DNA from: Ruminococcus champanellensis 18P13 = JCM 17042
Lineage (GTDB): Bacteria; Bacillota; Clostridia; Oscillospirales; Ruminococcaceae
Reading direction: 5' to 3'
Assembly (NCBI RefSeq): GCF_000210095.1
Contig: NC_021039.1
Span: forward strand, 466,297 to 530,296
DNA length: 64,000 nt
Shown here: one piece after another, positions 37,590 through 63,307 of the stretch
How positions within the stretch are numbered: the first letter of the stretch is position 1
Layout of the letters: each line of letters opens with the position of its first letter
The notes under the pieces: model-generated
Seen by the model: only the letters and a program-made list of their open reading frames with translations
Database searches by the model: none
What the model was told of the DNA's origin: nothing
Position numbers and translations under genes: made by a program

Positions 37590-39149
37590 TTATTCTTCGT
37601 CCTTCTTCATTCTCTTCTTGGTAATCAGTGCCACGCCGGAGCCGAGCACCAGAACGCCGCCCAGACCGTAGAAGATGGTGGTACCGATACCGCCGGTGGA
37701 GGGCAGTGTGGAGCCTTCCTTGTTGACGATATCGTTGTCCATATTCTTGCTGCCGGTCAGTGCCAGGTTGGCTGCTGTGCCGGATGCGCTCTCATTGTGG
37801 GCTGCCGCAATCACAATCTGCACATCAGCGCAGGTGTTGTAGCCGGTGGGTGTGGTGGTCTCACGGAGGGTGTATGTACCGGCATCCAGACCGATGATGT
37901 TAAATTTACCGTCAGCGGCGGACTTCATTTCCGCAGCGGCTTCGCCGGACTTGATGGGACGGTATGCATTCTTTGTTGTGTCAAAGATCAGACCGATTTC
38001 GGTGGTGCCTGCTGCATCGTAGAGCCGGAATCCGGCATTCTGCAGTTCATTGCCGGCGAGCGCTTCATTCTTGTACTTGGTGTTGTCCACGCCGTAGGTG
38101 AATGCCCAAACGTAATCCTCCGGTGTTTTACCGGTCTGGCTTGTGCCAGTGCCAGTGGAATCCGGGTTGTTGGAGTATTCCAGGTATACCTTGTTGTTGT
38201 TGACATGATCCTTGTCTCCGTCGGTAACATCACTCTTGGAAACGATAGCGTTTTCGTTCAAGTGTGCGTTATACACAACCTCGACCACGATTTCCTGTTC
38301 GCCCCAGGTGATGCTGGAGGGAACCAAGGGCTTTACATCGTTAATGGTCAATTCCCAGGACAGACCTGCCTTATCGGCAGCGCCAGTAGCGGTTTCTGTA
38401 TAAGCCGTAACGGGGTTGCCTGCAACGGTTACGCTGGCAATGCTGTCAAAGGTAACGCCTGCGCTCATGCTGTCGTGGAACACCAGTTTATATGCATCAT
38501 ATGCTTTGATCTGGTCATTTGCCGGAATTTTCGCAGTCAGCTTGAACTGGAACTGCTCGTTGATGGCATGATCCGCAGTTTCGCCCCAACCCTCTGCATC
38601 TGTGCTGTTGGTGTCCTTGTCTGCGGCTTCGTCCTGGATCTGCTTGTCCACTGTGGGTTTTGCAGTCTTGACGGCAACGTGTGCTTCTCCGGCAACCTGT
38701 ACGATCCAAGCGGAGTTGGCATCATCTTTGTCGTCCAGGTTGGTGACGTCCTTCACAACGTAGTAGCCGTCCTCCAGCCCGTCGATTGTCAGATTGGGGC
38801 TGCTCGAAGAAACAGTTTTGCATGCGGTACCCAGCGTGATCATGCTGACAATGCTTCTTGCATCTGTACCGCTCATTGCGGATACAATGGCGTCGTCCAC
38901 CTTTGCACCGGCTGTAACTGCTGCGCTGTTATATGCGGTAATGCCATCAGCCCAAACCAGATTGCTGAGCTTGCCGTTTACAAGATCGCCCTTGAAAATC
39001 TGGTATATTTCAAAATCATGCTGCTCCGCGCCGATGCCGGTGATTTCAATGGATGCGGCGGATGCGGTAAAGGGGACTGCTACCATAGCCATGGGAGCTA
39101 CCATGCATGCTGCAAGTGCGATGGCTGCAAATTTACTGGACTTTTTCAT
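37590..39149 (-). CDS. Major pilin subunit (SpaA-type, LPXTG)
   Basis: 519 residues. Signal peptide ending TASAAS (about 1-32); N-domain; a segment VAVKTAKPTVDKQ (about 157-170) that could supply the polymerisation lysine; a middle isopeptide domain; a Cna-B/SpaA domain with the E-box YTLRETTTPTGY (about 425-436). Sorting signal LPSTG (about 482-486), membrane helix, and KKRMKKDEE tail. These are the parts of a backbone pilin polymerised by sortase C, whose gene follows. RBS GGAATTG... is moderate (AAAGGAATTGATC), with a 61-nt gap to the tip gene. Confidence 0.9.
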   Translation of the reverse strand: MKKSSKFAAIALAACMVAPMAMVAVPFTASAASIEITGIGAEQHDFEIYQIFKGDLVNGKLSNLVWADGITAYNSAAVTAGAKVDDAIVSAMSGTDARSIVSMITLGTACKTVSSSSPNLTIDGLEDGYYVVKDVTNLDDKDDANSAWIVQVAGEAHVAVKTAKPTVDKQIQDEAADKDTNSTDAEGWGETADHAINEQFQFKLTAKIPANDQIKAYDAYKLVFHDSMSAGVTFDSIASVTVAGNPVTAYTETATGAADKAGLSWELTINDVKPLVPSSITWGEQEIVVEVVYNAHLNENAIVSKSDVTDGDKDHVNNNKVYLEYSNNPDSTGTGTSQTGKTPEDYVWAFTYGVDNTKYKNEALAGNELQNAGFRLYDAAGTTEIGLIFDTTKNAYRPIKSGEAAAEMKSAADGKFNIIGLDAGTYTLRETTTPTGYNTCADVQIVIAAAHNESASGTAANLALTGSKNMDNDIVNKEGSTLPSTGGIGTTIFYGLGGVLVLGSGVALITKKRMKKDEE

Positions 39150-39210
39150 AAGATCAATTCCTTTCTGAATTTGAATGTTTTGTTTGGATATGCTTGTTTA
39201 TTCAATGCCC

Positions 39211-41709
39211 TTAGGCTGAGGAACGGAACTGTTTTTGCCTTCGCAGAACGAAGAGGCCTGCGGCGGCGGTCATCAGGGAAATGCCGATGAGCCGATGGGC
39301 GAAGGTGCCGGAGCCGCCGGTGGAGGGCATCACAACGCCGGTGGTTTTGCTTGGGGTATTGCACACAGTGATGCTGCCGTCCTTGCCGGTGATGTACTTG
39401 TCGCCCGGACTGTTCTCGTACAGATAGCTTGCGTCATAACCGCTGAAGTCCTTTTCCACCGCCCAATAGTAGTAGGGATTTCCGTCTGCATCTGTTGCGG
39501 GCAGGTTTTCAGCCGTTGCCGTCCAGCCGGTGTCTTTCCGGATCTCCAGATTCTGCACCCAGGTGGGGGAGGAGGATCCGTTTGCCGCCGCCAGAACCGG
39601 TTTAATGCTGTCCATGCCCTGTTGGGAAGTGGTGTTGAAGTATAGGAACACACTTTCCAATGTGCCAGTACCGTTATACCGATATATTATGAGTTTTGAA
39701 CTAGTTGGCGGTGTCAGCTTTATATGGATCAATCCATCCGACTCCGCATCTGCAAACTGATATGATTTATAATTCGGGTGGATGTGAACCTGTCCATCTC
39801 CGCCGCTTGCAAGATCACTGATCTTCAAAGCGATTTCCGTGATGTTGGTGTAGTCAAATGCGGAAAGGTCAATTTCAGTACCGAATACTACATTGTCCAA
39901 CTGAACGGTGTTCCCGCTTGGCGGACTCTTTCCGGTGGTGGTTACCGTTGCAGTGGTTGTTGTGGTGACTGCCATGGTGGTGATTTTTTCCTGGTTTGGC
40001 ACGTCCGCCGGATTGGTGGAACGGTGGATCTCCACCACTACGGTGTCACTGTCATGGCTGTTGGTGGCATGATCCGACCAGACCTTATGTATTCCGATCC
40101 GGATGCCCTGGGTGGTGGTTGCAGCCGCCGTGGTAGTGGTAGCCGGTGCGGTGGTAGTAGTGGTCTGCACGGTTGTGGTGGTAGTGGTTTCTGTAGTTGT
40201 GGTGGTTTGTGTGGTTGTGGTGGATTCGTCCGATGCAGTTGTGGTGGTAGCAGCTGTACCAGTGCCGGTTGTGGTTGTGACGACTGTCGTGTTGTTGGTG
40301 TTGGAAATCACAATCATACCGATGGTACTCAAACCGTTGCCGCTGTAGGATACGGTGTATCCATCCGGAACATCAAGCTCCTTGACGTAGTAGAAGTATC
40401 CCTTTTCTACATTTTCCCACTTATATGCCCAGTTGTTGGTGCTGTTTAAGGTAATAGGTTCGCCGCTCTTTTGTGCGTCCGTCAACTGGGACAGATCCTC
40501 CACGGCATCCTGGCTCTTGTAAAGCTGAACCCGGACATTGTCTCCCTCGTGGGATGTTCCCTCCGGATCACCTACCCACTGCTTTTCCACGGATACATCC
40601 ATGGGCTTGGTGGATTTGAGCCCGTAGTAGGAATAGAAGTGAGCCTCGCCGCCGGTAAAGGCGTTCCTGGCAATGACATTGCCCTCAAAGTTACCGCCGG
40701 TGACGATGGAGCCATCCTCACGGCAATTGATTTGTACCGTTGCATTCGGAGCCACCAGATGCCCTGTTAGATGTTTAACGCTTACATCCGTTGCATCCGG
40801 GAAATTCCAGATCAGATTGGCACCGTCCAGGTTTGCCTCTCCTCCGTGGATCGCACCTGAAAGACCTTTAAACATATTAGAGGATTGCTGTTCGTTGACG
40901 GTAACGAATTTGTCGACATTGGAGTATTCAAAGGTGAAATAAGTGTCTGTCACATCGGGGATTGTAATTGTATAACCGTTTCTGGCCATTCCATCAACTA
41001 TTTTTTCTGTTGTTGCACCGGTACTGCTCGTGAAGTTGATTAATCCGATCTGGTCGTAAATGTTTTTCGGGATTATGATATCCGTAGCCGTGACCGTGCT
41101 CACATCAATATCCAATTTCTTGCCAGACGTGTGATTATATGTCTGCGTCAGATCGGATGCCTGTACGACCCATACATGGGAGCCGGTTTCCGTTGCTTTC
41201 GCCTGTGACCACGCCCGGATGTTCTGAAAGGCTTGCGCAAAATCTATGTACGGATCAGTGACCTGCACATAGTTTGTTCCGAGGAATACATTGTCTTCCT
41301 TGGTTTGATAATAGAATGCAAGGTTCTCTTTGTCCGCCTCATCCAGATATGCGCCGCAGCTGTAATTATAAGCTTCTATAATATTCTTTGCGTAAGAGGG
41401 TGCCTTTGCGGCATCACCGCTGGCACTTTTACCGGTATAATCGTTTCCTACAGCCATCGCACCTACAACGTGGTTGTGGGTAGTCAGGTCGTTTTCTATA
41501 AACAGATTATAACTGGACAGAATGTTTTCGATGGTATATGCTTTGTCGTATTTGGGGTCTCCCCCTGTCATACTCACCGCCGGCATCATCAGCGCCGAGC
41601 AGACAAAAGAGATCACCAGCGCAGAGAGCATCAGGAATACGGCAAAGTAGCGTGCCTGATTCCGGTGCGTATGCAGGATCTCTGTGACCTGCTGCGATTG
41701 TTTGCGCAT
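39211..41709 (-). CDS. Pilus tip/ancillary protein: choice-of-anchor A domain, Cna-B repeats, Thr-rich linker, MPSTG
   Basis: 832 residues from the ATG at 41709 (GGGAGGTG RBS). A membrane-spanning signal segment (about 20-45) leads to a choice-of-anchor A domain (about 55-360: SYNLFIENDLTTHNHVVGAMAVG, later NFEGNVIARNAFTGGEAHFYSYYG). A first Cna-B domain (VSVEKQWVGDPEG..., about 370-470), a Thr-rich linker (about 470-545), and a second Cna-B-like region (IRIGIHKVWSDHATNSHDS) follow. The sorting signal MPSTG (about 794) is a variant of LPXTG. The long exposed stalk fits an adhesin at the pilus tip. Confidence 0.85.
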   Translation of the reverse strand: MRKQSQQVTEILHTHRNQARYFAVFLMLSALVISFVCSALMMPAVSMTGGDPKYDKAYTIENILSSYNLFIENDLTTHNHVVGAMAVGNDYTGKSASGDAAKAPSYAKNIIEAYNYSCGAYLDEADKENLAFYYQTKEDNVFLGTNYVQVTDPYIDFAQAFQNIRAWSQAKATETGSHVWVVQASDLTQTYNHTSGKKLDIDVSTVTATDIIIPKNIYDQIGLINFTSSTGATTEKIVDGMARNGYTITIPDVTDTYFTFEYSNVDKFVTVNEQQSSNMFKGLSGAIHGGEANLDGANLIWNFPDATDVSVKHLTGHLVAPNATVQINCREDGSIVTGGNFEGNVIARNAFTGGEAHFYSYYGLKSTKPMDVSVEKQWVGDPEGTSHEGDNVRVQLYKSQDAVEDLSQLTDAQKSGEPITLNSTNNWAYKWENVEKGYFYYVKELDVPDGYTVSYSGNGLSTIGMIVISNTNNTTVVTTTTGTGTAATTTTASDESTTTTQTTTTTETTTTTTVQTTTTTAPATTTTAAATTTQGIRIGIHKVWSDHATNSHDSDTVVVEIHRSTNPADVPNQEKITTMAVTTTTTATVTTTGKSPPSGNTVQLDNVVFGTEIDLSAFDYTNITEIALKISDLASGGDGQVHIHPNYKSYQFADAESDGLIHIKLTPPTSSKLIIYRYNGTGTLESVFLYFNTTSQQGMDSIKPVLAAANGSSSPTWVQNLEIRKDTGWTATAENLPATDADGNPYYYWAVEKDFSGYDASYLYENSPGDKYITGKDGSITVCNTPSKTTGVVMPSTGGSGTFAHRLIGISLMTAAAGLFVLRRQKQFRSSA
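40110..40295 (-). repeat. Thr-rich low-complexity tract in the tip pilin gene
   Basis: ACC/ACT/ACA repeats on the minus strand encode a Thr-rich linker broken by TAATTT and PATTTT blocks. Probably O-glycosylated in vivo and prone to length change. Confidence 0.8.
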
Positions 41710-41724
41710 TCCTGTCACCTCCCT

Positions 41725-42309
41725 TTAATCCAGGAAACCCAGTCGCTCCAGGGGCCAGACCCGTAAAAATACCTTTCCGATCACATACTCGTCCGCAATG
41801 CAGCCAACCGCTGTGGTGCGGCTGTCCACCGAGGTTTCCCGGTTGTCCCCCATCACGAAGATCCGGTTGTCCGGCACTTGATAGGGGAAGTCGATGTCGC
41901 ACTGCCCCAGTTTTTTTTTCGTGATGTAAGGCTCGTCCAACTGACTGCCGTTGACGAATACGTTGCCGCTGTCGTCGATTTCAATGGTGTCCCCGGCTGT
42001 GCCGATGACCCGCTTCAGCAGCACCTTGTTGTTGTAGTAAAATGCCACCAGATCCCCGGACTGAAACCGGCTGCTTTTGAGGCATACCACGATCTCCTTT
42101 GGCTGCAGTGTTGGCTCCATGCTGGAGCCGGTGACCCGGAAGATGGGGAAGAACAGCATGGCTGCCAGCACCGCCACCGCCGCCACTACCAGCAGGGAGA
42201 AAACCGTCTGCCGGAAGATGCGCCGGCTGTTCTGCTTACGTCGCAGCCGTTTCAGTTCTCCTTCAATCTGCCGGACAGTGAAGCCCCGGGCTTCATTCTG
42301 TTCCTGCAT
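41725..42309 (-). CDS. Signal peptidase I in the pilus operon
   Basis: 194 residues from the ATG at 42309 (GGGAG 9 nt upstream; an ATG at 42318 is too close to the RBS). One membrane helix (about 34-56), then the S26 motifs GSSMEPTL (catalytic Ser63), LLKRVIG (catalytic Lys99) and VMGDNRETSVDSR. The N-terminal 30 residues are basic and cytoplasmic. Dedicated signal peptidases are common in pilus operons and may process the unusual signal segment of the tip protein. Confidence 0.93.
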   Translation of the reverse strand: MQEQNEARGFTVRQIEGELKRLRRKQNSRRIFRQTVFSLLVVAAVAVLAAMLFFPIFRVTGSSMEPTLQPKEIVVCLKSSRFQSGDLVAFYYNNKVLLKRVIGTAGDTIEIDDSGNVFVNGSQLDEPYITKKKLGQCDIDFPYQVPDNRIFVMGDNRETSVDSRTTAVGCIADEYVIGKVFLRVWPLERLGFLD

Positions 42310-42583
42310 CGGTATCATCTCCCGCCTTTGGCACCTGTGGGTGTTCTGCCTGGATACTGTTCAGGTAATCCTCCGCCGCCTGCTGGGCAGCCTCAAACAC
42401 CTTGTTCAGCTTCAGGGCGGCTTCTGCAATGCTGCCCGTCTGCTCCAGGGTGATCCGCCGATCCAGAAGCTTTTGGTTCAGTTCCTGGTTCTCCTGCCGG
42501 AGCTGGTCGATCTCCTCCTGCATTTGCAGCATCAGCTCCAGAAGTTCTGTGCGCCGGAGCTTTCTGAGTTCCTTTTGTTTCAT
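42293..42583 (-). CDS. Small coiled-coil protein, first gene of the pilus operon
   Basis: 96 residues from the ATG at 42583 (GGAG 6 nt upstream). It has no signal peptide; about residues 5-45 form a coiled coil with regular Leu spacing (LRKLRRTELLELMLQMQEE), followed by a second helix and an acidic tail. It overlaps the signal peptidase start by 17 nt. Function unknown; as the first gene downstream of the pilus promoter it may be a cytoplasmic assembly or regulatory partner. Confidence 0.75.
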   Translation of the reverse strand: MKQKELRKLRRTELLELMLQMQEEIDQLRQENQELNQKLLDRRITLEQTGSIAEAALKLNKVFEAAQQAAEDYLNSIQAEHPQVPKAGDDTDAGTE

Positions 42584-43344: not shown

Positions 43345-43353
43345 CCGAACAGA

Positions 43354-43398
43354 AAAACACTGCCCAGAGCCGGAACGATGCTCTGGGCAGTGTTTTCT
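43354..43398. terminator. Bidirectional terminator between GNAT and the 18-aa peptide gene
   Basis: Long stem AACACTGCCCAGAGC / GCTCTGGGCAGTGTT with A-rich left and T-rich right flanks, so it can end transcripts from both sides. On the minus strand it follows the peptide gene, with a smaller hairpin (GCTGCCCGG / CCGGGCGGC) in between. Confidence 0.88.
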
Positions 43399-43441
43399 TA
43401 TGTAAGCCGCCCGGTACACCGGGCAGCAGCTGTTTTACAGA

Positions 43442-43498
43442 TTAGCCGCAAAAGGACTTGAGCAGCTCACACAGCTTTGTGAAAAACGCATTACACAT
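43442..43498 (-). CDS. 18-residue three-cysteine peptide, previously unrecognised small gene
   Basis: The product reads MCNAFFTKLCELLKSFCG. AAGGAG lies 9 nt before the ATG; a TTGCAC-17-TATACT promoter is 120 nt upstream; two hairpins, the second a strong terminator, follow the TAA. Thus all signals of an independent gene are present. The sequence plots as an amphipathic helix (F5, F6, L9, L12, L13, F16 on one face) with cysteines at 2, 10 and 17. No family is recognised. Options are a membrane-active or type I toxin-like peptide, a signalling peptide, or a leader peptide; the sequence does not decide. Confidence 0.6.
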   Translation of the reverse strand: MCNAFFTKLCELLKSFCG

Positions 43499-43542
43499 GA
43501 TTTCGCTCTCCTTGATTTATTTCCCCTGGGGGATTGAGTTGA

Positions 43543-43613
43543 GGCAACACCCCGCAAAGCATGCCCGGCGGCTGTGCGCAGCTTCTGCCGTACAAGCCTT
43601 GTGAGGTGTTGTC
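43543..43613. repeat. 71-bp GGCAACACC-family element forming the peptide-gene leader
   Basis: Left end GGCAACACCCCGCAAAG (43543-43559) and inverted right end CCTTGTGAGGTGTTGTC (43597-43613), 13 of 17 pairs matching. The left 55 bp align with the left part of the 63.1-kb element at about 75 percent by eye. On the minus strand it lies immediately after the -10 box and becomes the 5' leader of the peptide gene. Confidence 0.7.
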
Positions 43614-43616
43614 TAT

Positions 43617-43645
43617 AGTATATCATATCGGTAGGAATTGTGCAA
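43617..43645 (-). promoter_or_regulatory. Promoter of the 18-aa peptide gene
   Basis: Minus strand TTGCAC (43645-43640), 17 nt, TATACT (43622-43617). The predicted transcript begins at or just inside the repeat element. Confidence 0.7.
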
Positions 43646-43693
43646 TGCAAAGCTTCTGGCAGGGATCCTGCCGTTCATTGGATCCATGCCGGA

Positions 43694-43735: not shown

Positions 43736-44305
43736 TTATTGCTTTTCCTGTTGCCGCTTGTGCATCAGCGTATGGATGCCGAACCAGGTCAGTGCCCCCA
43801 GGGTGCCGGAGATGATGTCTCCCATGGTGTTGGTGTTGTCCCCCTGCATGTTGATGCCCAACAGGTTGTCGGCAGTGAACTCGTAGATCTCCCAGATGCC
43901 GGCACCGGCGATGGCGAAGAACATGGAGAACAGTCGGCACAGCAACGGTTCTGCCGGAGTATGCCGCCTCCCGGCAAGGGCGTGGATGAGAATCAGTCCT
44001 CCCTCCGCCAGGACGATGCCGCTGGTGTAGTGAACGAACTTATCGTAAAACCCCAGGTAATGGTACAGGTTCAGTGCCGATCCCAGCACCGCCGCCAGCA
44101 CCTCAAAGCCGAATGCCATGCAGTAGAACCGGAAGGGGAATCGCCATACCACTCCGGTCAGCAAAAAGACGGCGGCAAAGGAGCCGATGAGCTTTGCGCT
44201 GGTGGTTTCCAGCCCGGTGAGCCGGGTGATGATCGCTGCCAGAACCGTCAGCGCCAATACGATCAGAGAAACGGTCAGTTTTTTTCCGGTGTCCTGCTTT
44301 TGCAT
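43736..44305 (-). CDS. Integral membrane protein, DUF2238/YjdF-like
   Basis: 189 residues with five to six hydrophobic segments. The pattern YDKFVHYTSGIVLAEGG (about 87-103), then GAGIWEIYEFTAD and DNTNTMGDIISGTLGAL, with conserved His, Glu and Asp inside membrane segments, is that of the DUF2238 (YjdF) family as I recall it. Function is unknown. It starts 24 nt after the pyrB stop and is closed by its own terminator, so it is probably the last gene of the asnB-HD-pyrB unit. Confidence 0.7.
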   Translation of the reverse strand: MQKQDTGKKLTVSLIVLALTVLAAIITRLTGLETTSAKLIGSFAAVFLLTGVVWRFPFRFYCMAFGFEVLAAVLGSALNLYHYLGFYDKFVHYTSGIVLAEGGLILIHALAGRRHTPAEPLLCRLFSMFFAIAGAGIWEIYEFTADNLLGINMQGDNTNTMGDIISGTLGALTWFGIHTLMHKRQQEKQ

Positions 44306-63136: not shown

Positions 63137-63307
63137 GGCAACACTGCGCAAAGCCTGCCTGTCGGCTTTACGCAGCATTTGCAGACGAATTTTCCGTCAT
63201 ATCAAACAGAAGCTTCTTGCAATACGCCAGTATTCCTGCGTCGTTTCTATGCAATCTGACGAAAAATCTGTTGCACATCTACCACACAATCTTTGTGCGG
63301 TGTTGCC
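63137..63307. repeat. 171-bp GGCAACACC-family inverted-repeat element (MITE-like)
   Basis: Left end GGCAACACTGCGCAAAG (63137-63153) and right end CTTTGTGCGGTGTTGCC (63291-63307) match as inverted repeats at 15 of 17 positions. Both sides are flanked by ATAA (63133-63136 and 63308-63311), a candidate 4-bp target duplication. The interior codes for nothing recognisable. It is the longest copy of the family in the window and separates the promoter from the PBP1 start. Confidence 0.75.

What the first reader, a model, noticed from the sequence alone, without database searches (positions are those of the whole stretch)
43442..43645. An 18-aa three-cysteine peptide gene with its own promoter, structured leader and terminator
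TTGCAC-17-TATACT, a leader made of a GGCAACACC-family element, AAGGAG at 9 nt, an 18-codon ORF (MCNAFFTKLCELLKSFCG) and two hairpins form a complete gene too short for usual annotation. The peptide is amphipathic with Cys at 2, 10 and 17. A structured leader plus a tiny amphipathic peptide is how several type I toxins and signalling or leader peptides look.
Basis: partly seen in the sequence, partly recalled or inferred. Interest (0 to 1): 0.72.

Follow-up and report, generated by a model that had tools for sequence, protein, structure and literature searches.

The report
Widespread tiny cysteine-rich peptide gene
The 18-residue peptide is very probably a real gene and one member of a family of tiny cysteine-rich helical peptides that Ruminococcus-type gut and rumen bacteria encode behind a conserved promoter; what the peptide does is not known.

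Summary
It is not chance: the same gene recurs in Ruminococcaceae. A promoter-plus-ATGTGY scan of a genome collection gave 108 stretches; 70 open a 14-26-residue Cys-rich peptide behind an RBS. A leader+ORF model not trained on the window finds it at E = 5.7e-10. One part is wrong: the GGCAACACC 'leader' is a dispersed inverted repeat lying between the -10 box and the conserved leader hairpin TCCC-loop-GGGA. Attenuation is disfavoured (terminator after the stop at 51 of 69 loci, no consistent downstream gene). A cis-antisense type I toxin gets no support (antisense promoter-like sites at chance). Best reading: a patchily distributed, signal-less, Cys-rich amphipathic microprotein that probably acts at the membrane, like phenol-soluble modulins in build only. 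The mechanism is inferred. Relatives tested match no family in Pfam, NCBIfam, PHROGs or PADLOC; no Rfam match.

The parts
43652..43661 (-). Upstream promoter box TGCCAGAAGC; family consensus T[TG]CCANNAT[TC], immediately 5' of TTTGCATTG; the window departs at one position
   Evidence: in 65 aligned relatives T61, C55, C60, A62, A51, T55, T49 at its fixed positions; the box was not part of the search pattern
43643..43651 (-). TTTGCATTG, conserved element overlapping the -35 (TTGCAC, 43640-43645)
   Evidence: exact N20 spacing to the -10 box (imposed by the scan in the 70 loci; first seen in the relatives)
43617..43625 (-). Extended -10: TG-A-TATACT
   Evidence: T in 50 of 65 and G in 58 of 65 relatives at the TG positions
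43543..43613 (-).
43522..43533 (-). Conserved leader hairpin TCCC-CCAG-GGGA, followed by AATA
   Evidence: common family form ATCCC-loop-GGGAAATA
43508..43513 (-). Shine-Dalgarno AAGGAG, 9 nt before ATG
   Evidence: relatives mostly GGAGG
43442..43498 (-). 18-codon ORF plus stop, MCNAFFTKLCELLKSFCG
43406..43429 (-). Hairpin CTGCTGCCCGGTGTACCGGGCGGC between stop and terminator, without a T run
43353..43395 (-). Intrinsic terminator, facing the convergent GNAT gene on the + strand

Best explanation
A microprotein gene with its own conserved promoter (T[TG]CCANNATY-TTTGCATTGA-N19-TATAMT). The predicted mRNA is short: in relatives usually 34-64 nt from -10 box to ATG, one ORF of 16-27 codons (sometimes two or three in tandem), then a terminator; about 0.26 kb in the window because of the inserted repeat. 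A small hairpin near the 5' end and a strong Shine-Dalgarno precede the ORF. The product has no signal peptide: a short, mostly neutral to mildly positive amphipathic helix with Cys at residue 2 and another Cys within four residues of the C end. It probably works by lying on or in the membrane through its Phe/Trp/Leu face, with the terminal cysteines making disulfide, metal or other contacts. Shown by computation: family, conserved parts, coding selection, helical periodicity, patchy presence. Inferred: transcription and translation, membrane action, role of the cysteines, any dedicated regulator.
For: 70 of 108 pattern hits encode the peptide behind an RBS; their records are labelled Ruminococcus, Oscillospiraceae, Clostridia/Clostridiales, Anaerotruncus or Bacillota. 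Purifying selection: pN/pS 0.16 in 24 non-overlapping pairs, 0.19 in 104 pairs; 1.6 and 1.3 in the other two frames. Hydrophobic moment peaks at 100 degrees (0.39; 0.19 or less at the six other angles), mean z 2.1 against shuffles; Cys 24%, net charge -1 to +2, for 59 distinct peptides. A leader+ORF model not trained on the window finds it at 39.3 bits, E 5.7e-10. A promoter+leader model without ORF information (R1) reached G322 and G168, not met before, and G191 and G371, met before through an MC-based profile; all four open MC peptides. The last Cys is within four residues of the C end in 66 of 66 distinct peptides, which no DNA pattern imposed. Terminators at 51 of 69 loci.
Against: No expression, localisation or activity data. 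Helical periodicity fits soluble coiled coils or protein binding as well as membranes. The middle Cys tends to the polar side (mean cosine -0.28); 24% Cys is unusual for a purely membrane-active peptide. Cys at residue 2 was imposed by the main scan. R1 by itself does not lift the window above background (22.6 bits, E 1.6e-4, promoter part only), and 3 of its 19 hits of 30 bits or more show no such peptide (G291, G338, G392). Its E <= 0.1 list (391 of 396 genomes) is mostly background. In the window's own genus the two other genomes held gave no convincing match.
Confidence: 0.45

Rival explanations
1. Cytosolic thiol peptide: the terminal Cys clusters bind a metal ion or Fe-S cluster, or buffer redox, and the amphipathic face drives self-assembly or docking on a partner.
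For: 3-6 Cys per peptide, at both ends; convergent with an rnfB-like Fe-S gene in 14 of 70 loci.
Against: Cys number and spacing vary between members; the rnfB neighbourhood occurs in a minority of loci and may be plain synteny.
Confidence: 0.22
2. Exported leaderless peptide (signal, bacteriocin or surfactant-like).
For: Tandem copies in 8 of 70 loci and in G371 and G329, sometimes of different peptides (L121, L145, G329); patchy presence.
Against: No exporter, immunity or sensor gene stood out as a recurrent neighbour within 3.5 kb in most loci (an ABC-2-type protein is downstream in 5 loci); genomes at large not examined.
Confidence: 0.15
3. Type I toxin with antisense RNA control.
For: Tiny ORF, structured transcript, tandem copies, patchy presence.
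Against: Antisense promoter-like sites at chance (17 of 69, 17.3 expected); amphipathic rather than a continuous hydrophobic span. A trans-encoded antitoxin RNA was not tested.
Confidence: 0.08
4. Dual-function small RNA in which the RNA, not the peptide, is the main product.
For: Short RNA with 5' hairpin and terminator.
Against: Besides the small hairpin and the RBS the untranslated parts look poorly conserved (by eye), while the ORF is conserved at the protein level.
Confidence: 0.06
5. Cys-codon leader peptide of an attenuator.
For: Early Cys codons; terminator downstream.
Against: The next gene is convergent or unrelated in different clades; tandem copies keep RBS and ORF.
Confidence: 0.02

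Closest known systems
Phenol-soluble modulins / delta-toxin of staphylococci (recalled)
   Same: About 20-26 residues, no leader, amphipathic helix, tandem genes, easily missed by annotation, own regulated promoter
   Different: Here Cys-rich (24%) with Cys at both ends; no sequence relation tested directly; no Pmt-like exporter recognised among the recurrent neighbours
SpoVM-type amphipathic membrane microproteins (recalled)
   Same: About 26-residue amphipathic helix without signal peptide
   Different: No Cys in SpoVM (recalled); here presence is patchy and copies occur in tandem
Type I toxins such as Ibs, TisB, Fst (recalled)
   Same: Tiny ORF on a structured transcript, tandem copies
   Different: No antisense promoter signal; not a continuous hydrophobic span
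Cys-rich upstream ORFs of cysteine-responsive attenuators (recalled)
   Same: Short Cys-rich ORF
   Different: Terminator after the ORF and no consistent downstream gene

Membership tests
The Cys-peptide family defined here | Leader hairpin, RBS and MC...C ORF fit a model built without the window | tested here: met
   R2: 39.3 bits, E 5.7e-10
The Cys-peptide family defined here | Promoter T[TG]CCANNATY-TTTGCATTG-N20-TATAMT | tested here: met
   TTTGCATTG-N20-TATACT exact; upstream box TGCCAGAAGC departs at one position. The promoter+leader model R1 alone scores the window only at background level (22.6 bits) because the leader is displaced
The Cys-peptide family defined here | Reading frame under purifying selection | tested here: met
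   For the family: pN/pS 0.16-0.19; other frames 1.3 or more. The window's copy is not among the 24 non-overlapping pairs
Type I toxin | cis-antisense RNA | tested here: inconclusive
   Promoter-like sites on the antisense strand at chance level, 17 of 69 against 17.3; a sequence scan cannot show absence of an RNA
Type I toxin | Toxic when overproduced | not testable with these tools
   Needs induced expression in a laboratory strain
Phenol-soluble modulin | Short leaderless amphipathic helix | tested here: met
   Moment peak at 100 degrees, mean z 2.1; no room for a leader in 16-27 residues
Phenol-soluble modulin | Sequence homology to staphylococcal PSMs | tested here: inconclusive
   No Pfam or NCBIfam family passes its cutoff for the 6 relatives of 21-27 residues scanned; direct comparison with PSMs not made; the 18-residue window peptide is below the tool's minimum
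Phenol-soluble modulin | Dedicated exporter and secretion | tested here: inconclusive
   No exporter recurs beside most loci within 3.5 kb; the rest of the genomes was not examined
Attenuator leader peptide | Regulated gene downstream in the same transcript | tested here: not met
   Terminator after the stop at 51 of 69 loci; downstream genes not consistent
Known RNA family (Rfam 15) | Match at gathering score | tested here: not met
   None in the window or in the 10 loci of relatives given

The most novel reading that the evidence does not exclude
A new class of bacterial microprotein: methionine removal would expose an N-terminal Cys, and the amphipathic helix, with thiols at both ends, acts at the membrane as a metal- or redox-dependent effector, or is released as a leaderless signal. 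Its strongly conserved promoter box would be read by a regulator with few other targets.
Probability: 0.17. Interest if true: 0.82.

Novelty: new variant of a known kind. Interest (0 to 1): 0.62.

Why it matters
A conserved protein family with its own promoter may have gone unnoticed in fibre-degrading bacteria of rumen and gut because its genes have only 16-27 codons (whether any copy is annotated was not checked). The conserved promoter and leader, and presence or absence next to tspO in genomes of one genus, make deletion and expression tests easy to design. It also shows that a conserved promoter plus a two-codon start can collect a fast-changing microprotein family that a protein search in one step mostly missed.

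Tried and rejected
Rejected: the GGCAACACC element as functional leader. Disfavoured: attenuator. Not supported: cis-antisense toxin. Phage origin: one viral contig matched the pattern; it opens a 22-residue MC ORF behind an RBS, but with 2 Cys, the second five residues from the C end, and I saw no leader hairpin, so I do not count it as a member. Known families: none in Rfam, NCBIfam, PADLOC; in Pfam and PHROGs only weak matches for one relative (E 0.06-0.23, below Pfam's cutoffs); best solved-structure match amoebapore A, E 1.5. Regulon: TTCCANNATNTTTGCATTGA with up to 3 mismatches in 11 genomes (list truncated). In G294, G119, G379 and G021 the best listed site (0-1 mismatch) is at this gene and all other listed sites have 2-3. 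In G304, however, the gene's own site has 3 mismatches and three other sites have 2, and in G371 and G329 no listed site is at the gene. A one-target regulator is therefore only a suggestion; after this check I lowered the novel case from 0.20 to 0.17. Similar promoters precede a secreted protein (G338) and a MecA-like gene (G404). Leader covariation: stem paired in 87.5% of cells, not above shuffles. Promoter pattern alone (107 of 396 family genomes) is not specific: 29 of the 30 loci read were not this gene. First protein search: 15 of 148 genomes at E <= 10, of which I accept the window, G113 and G119. Among the 38 pattern hits not accepted, L148 and L155 open Cys-containing ORFs of 20 and 23 residues without a recognised RBS. 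Literature: eight searches; listings and abstract starts only, three of them empty; no paper opened. Not done: structure prediction (peptides below the 30-residue minimum); a check of existing annotation; a direct comparison with PSMs.

Full report
WHAT IS THERE. The upstream gene (43736-44305, minus) encodes a membrane protein weakly like DUF2238 (22.9 bits, below Pfam's cutoff of 26.4). The window lies in a single-contig genome of 2,573,208 bp; that this is Ruminococcus champanellensis is my recollection of the genome size, not a result.

THE 'LEADER ELEMENT' IS A DISPERSED REPEAT. The stretch 43543-43613 begins GACAACACC and ends GGTGTTGCC. One search gave 12 further matches in the genome to the whole 261-bp region, 10 of them overlapping this stretch, the best 82% identical over 77 bp. 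The end sequence RACAACACCNCACAA with up to one mismatch occurs 54 times, own copy included, against 0 for the reversed pattern. In most relatives the hairpin stem starts about 7 nt after the -10 box; here the repeat lies between them. I read it as a MITE-like insertion; no target-site duplication was recognised.

THE GENE IS CONSERVED. A search with the 18 residues in 148 genomes of the same family gave 15 genomes at E up to 10; besides the window I accept two, each with its own promoter, leader and RBS: MCNFFASICEILKNFCGLY and MCSIFASLCEILKSICFYC. A three-row profile in 396 genomes gave 209 at E up to 10, mostly chance, but its top hits added members, among them a triple tandem copy. From these I read a common promoter, TTTGCATTG-N20-TATAMT, and scanned the collection genome contigs for it followed by ATGTGY: 108 stretches. 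In 70 of them the ATG follows an RBS and opens a peptide of 14-26 residues with at least three Cys (the 14-residue one, L170, runs off its contig). The 70 records bear Ruminococcus, Oscillospiraceae, Clostridia/Clostridiales, Anaerotruncus or Bacillota labels. The other 38, in Staphylococcus, Flavobacterium, Paenibacillus and so on as well as in some Clostridia, show no such peptide behind a recognised RBS; L148 and L155 open Cys-containing ORFs of 20 and 23 residues without one. Features that were not in the search pattern are also conserved in 65 aligned members: a box T[TG]CCANNAT[TC] directly upstream and an extended -10 TG, GGAGG, and in most a leader hairpin ATCCC-loop-GGGAAATA. The window shows all of them, the upstream box with one departure.

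INDEPENDENT CHECKS. (1) A model of promoter plus leader only (R1, 52 sequences, no coding sequence) in 396 family genomes: at E up to 0.1 nearly every genome has background hits (391 of 396), but 19 hits reach 30 bits, and 16 of these carry the peptide; G291, G338 and G392 do not show it. Part of the 16 are training loci under another name. G322 and G168 were met first through R1, and G191 and G371 lay outside the ATGTGY scan though met in the MC-based profile search; all four open MC peptides. G329 (26.5 bits) was picked out by its ORF. The window itself scores only 22.6 bits with R1, within the background, because the repeat displaces the leader. (2) A leader+ORF model (R2, 60 sequences, window not among them) finds the window at 39.3 bits, E = 5.7e-10; 19 of 327 genomes hit at E up to 1e-5, 18 of them with an MC ORF (that of G250 has an uncertain start), G025 without. 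R2 includes the start codons, so its hits say nothing free about Cys 2. (3) Codon analysis: pN/pS 0.16 over 24 non-overlapping pairs and 0.19 over 104 pairs, against 1.6 and 1.3 in the two other frames. (4) In 315 genomes drawn from the order (the family included), R1 at E up to 1e-6 hit three: a known member (G021) and two in another family, G404 (a MecA-like gene) and G608 (no such peptide seen).

THE PEPTIDES. 66 distinct peptides were compared: Cys at residue 2 in 66 of 66 (mostly imposed by the pattern), last Cys within four residues of the C end in 66 of 66 (not imposed), Cys as last residue in 37. For 59 of them: Cys 24%, Val 0.1%, no Pro, net charge -1 to +2 (34 of 59 at +1), and a hydrophobic moment that peaks at 100 degrees per residue (mean z 2.1 against shuffles; z above 1 in 85%). 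They look like short amphipathic helices with thiols at both ends. The cysteines are not all on one face: those at residue 3 lean to the hydrophobic side, the middle ones to the polar side. That Met is removed before Cys, leaving an N-terminal Cys, follows from the general rule for methionine aminopeptidase (recalled) and was not tested.

TRANSCRIPT AND CONTEXT. A terminator-like hairpin follows at 51 of 69 loci, median 11 nt after the stop (1-6 in five shuffled sets; one locus too short to test); antisense promoter-like sites are at chance, 17 of 69 against 17.3, while the sense promoter is seen in 64 of 69. In 27 of 70 loci a tspO-like gene lies nearby (Pfam PF03073 for one of them); for the 24 recognised by a motif it ends 82-120 nt before the peptide's ATG on the same strand. 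In 14 an rnfB-like Fe-S gene lies convergent, 91-808 nt downstream (the name is my reading). Several other loci have unrelated neighbours. Three genomes of genus g20 (that of R. flavefaciens ND2009) without an R1 hit of 30 bits (G206, G259, G345) keep tspO with no such peptide in the next 400 nt: the gene is accessory. Tandem copies are seen in 8 of the 70 loci and in G371 and G329, identical or different; in G371 the second and third copies repeat the leader hairpin. The hairpin's stem is paired in 87.5% of cells, but its covariation does not exceed shuffles, so it rests on conserved sequence and on stems kept across different loop lengths.

HOW IT PROBABLY WORKS. A conserved promoter makes a short mRNA for one microprotein. 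The amphipathic periodicity and lack of a signal peptide suggest action at the membrane surface from inside, or release without a leader; the terminal cysteines suggest disulfide, metal or cluster contacts. Membrane action is my first choice (0.45), a cytosolic metal or redox peptide second (0.22), an exported peptide third (0.15). Nothing here decides between them. Whether the promoter box is the site of a regulator is open: in four genomes with listed matches it is the closest site to the consensus, in G304 it is not, and in G371 and G329 the gene has no listed site (list truncated). The partial 11-bp direct repeat in it (CCANNAT / GCATTGA) is compatible with a response regulator but was not tested.

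NOVELTY. Six relatives of 21-27 residues match no NCBIfam family and no Pfam family above cutoff; three match nothing in PADLOC and four nothing convincing in PHROGs; there is no Rfam match. Eight literature searches (listings only) showed no description, within an open-access library. The kind, a leaderless amphipathic microprotein, is known; this Cys-ended family appears to be a new variant of it.

Noticed in passing
43543-43613, and e.g. 63293-63307: Dispersed inverted-repeat element with ends like GGCAACACCGCACAA, 54 end matches in the genome; looks like a MITE family.
   Followed up: partly
L248 (G338), about 1511 minus strand: Exact copy of the promoter box TTCCATTATTTTTGCATTGA with TATAAT before a gene for a protein with a signal-peptide-like start; it may share a regulator.
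   Followed up: partly
L294 (G404), about 1511 minus strand: Similar promoter (TTTCCATATTTTTTGCATTG) before a gene that I recognise as MecA-like, in another family of the order.
   Followed up: no
37590-42318: Two large minus-strand ORFs ending in LPSTGG/MPSTGG-type sorting signals and a signal-peptidase-like ORF; looks like a sortase pilus locus.
   Followed up: no
L066 / L245 (G191), leader of the peptide gene: The leader between ATCCC and GGGAAATA is much longer than in relatives (of the order of 100 nt), yet both flanks are kept.
   Followed up: no
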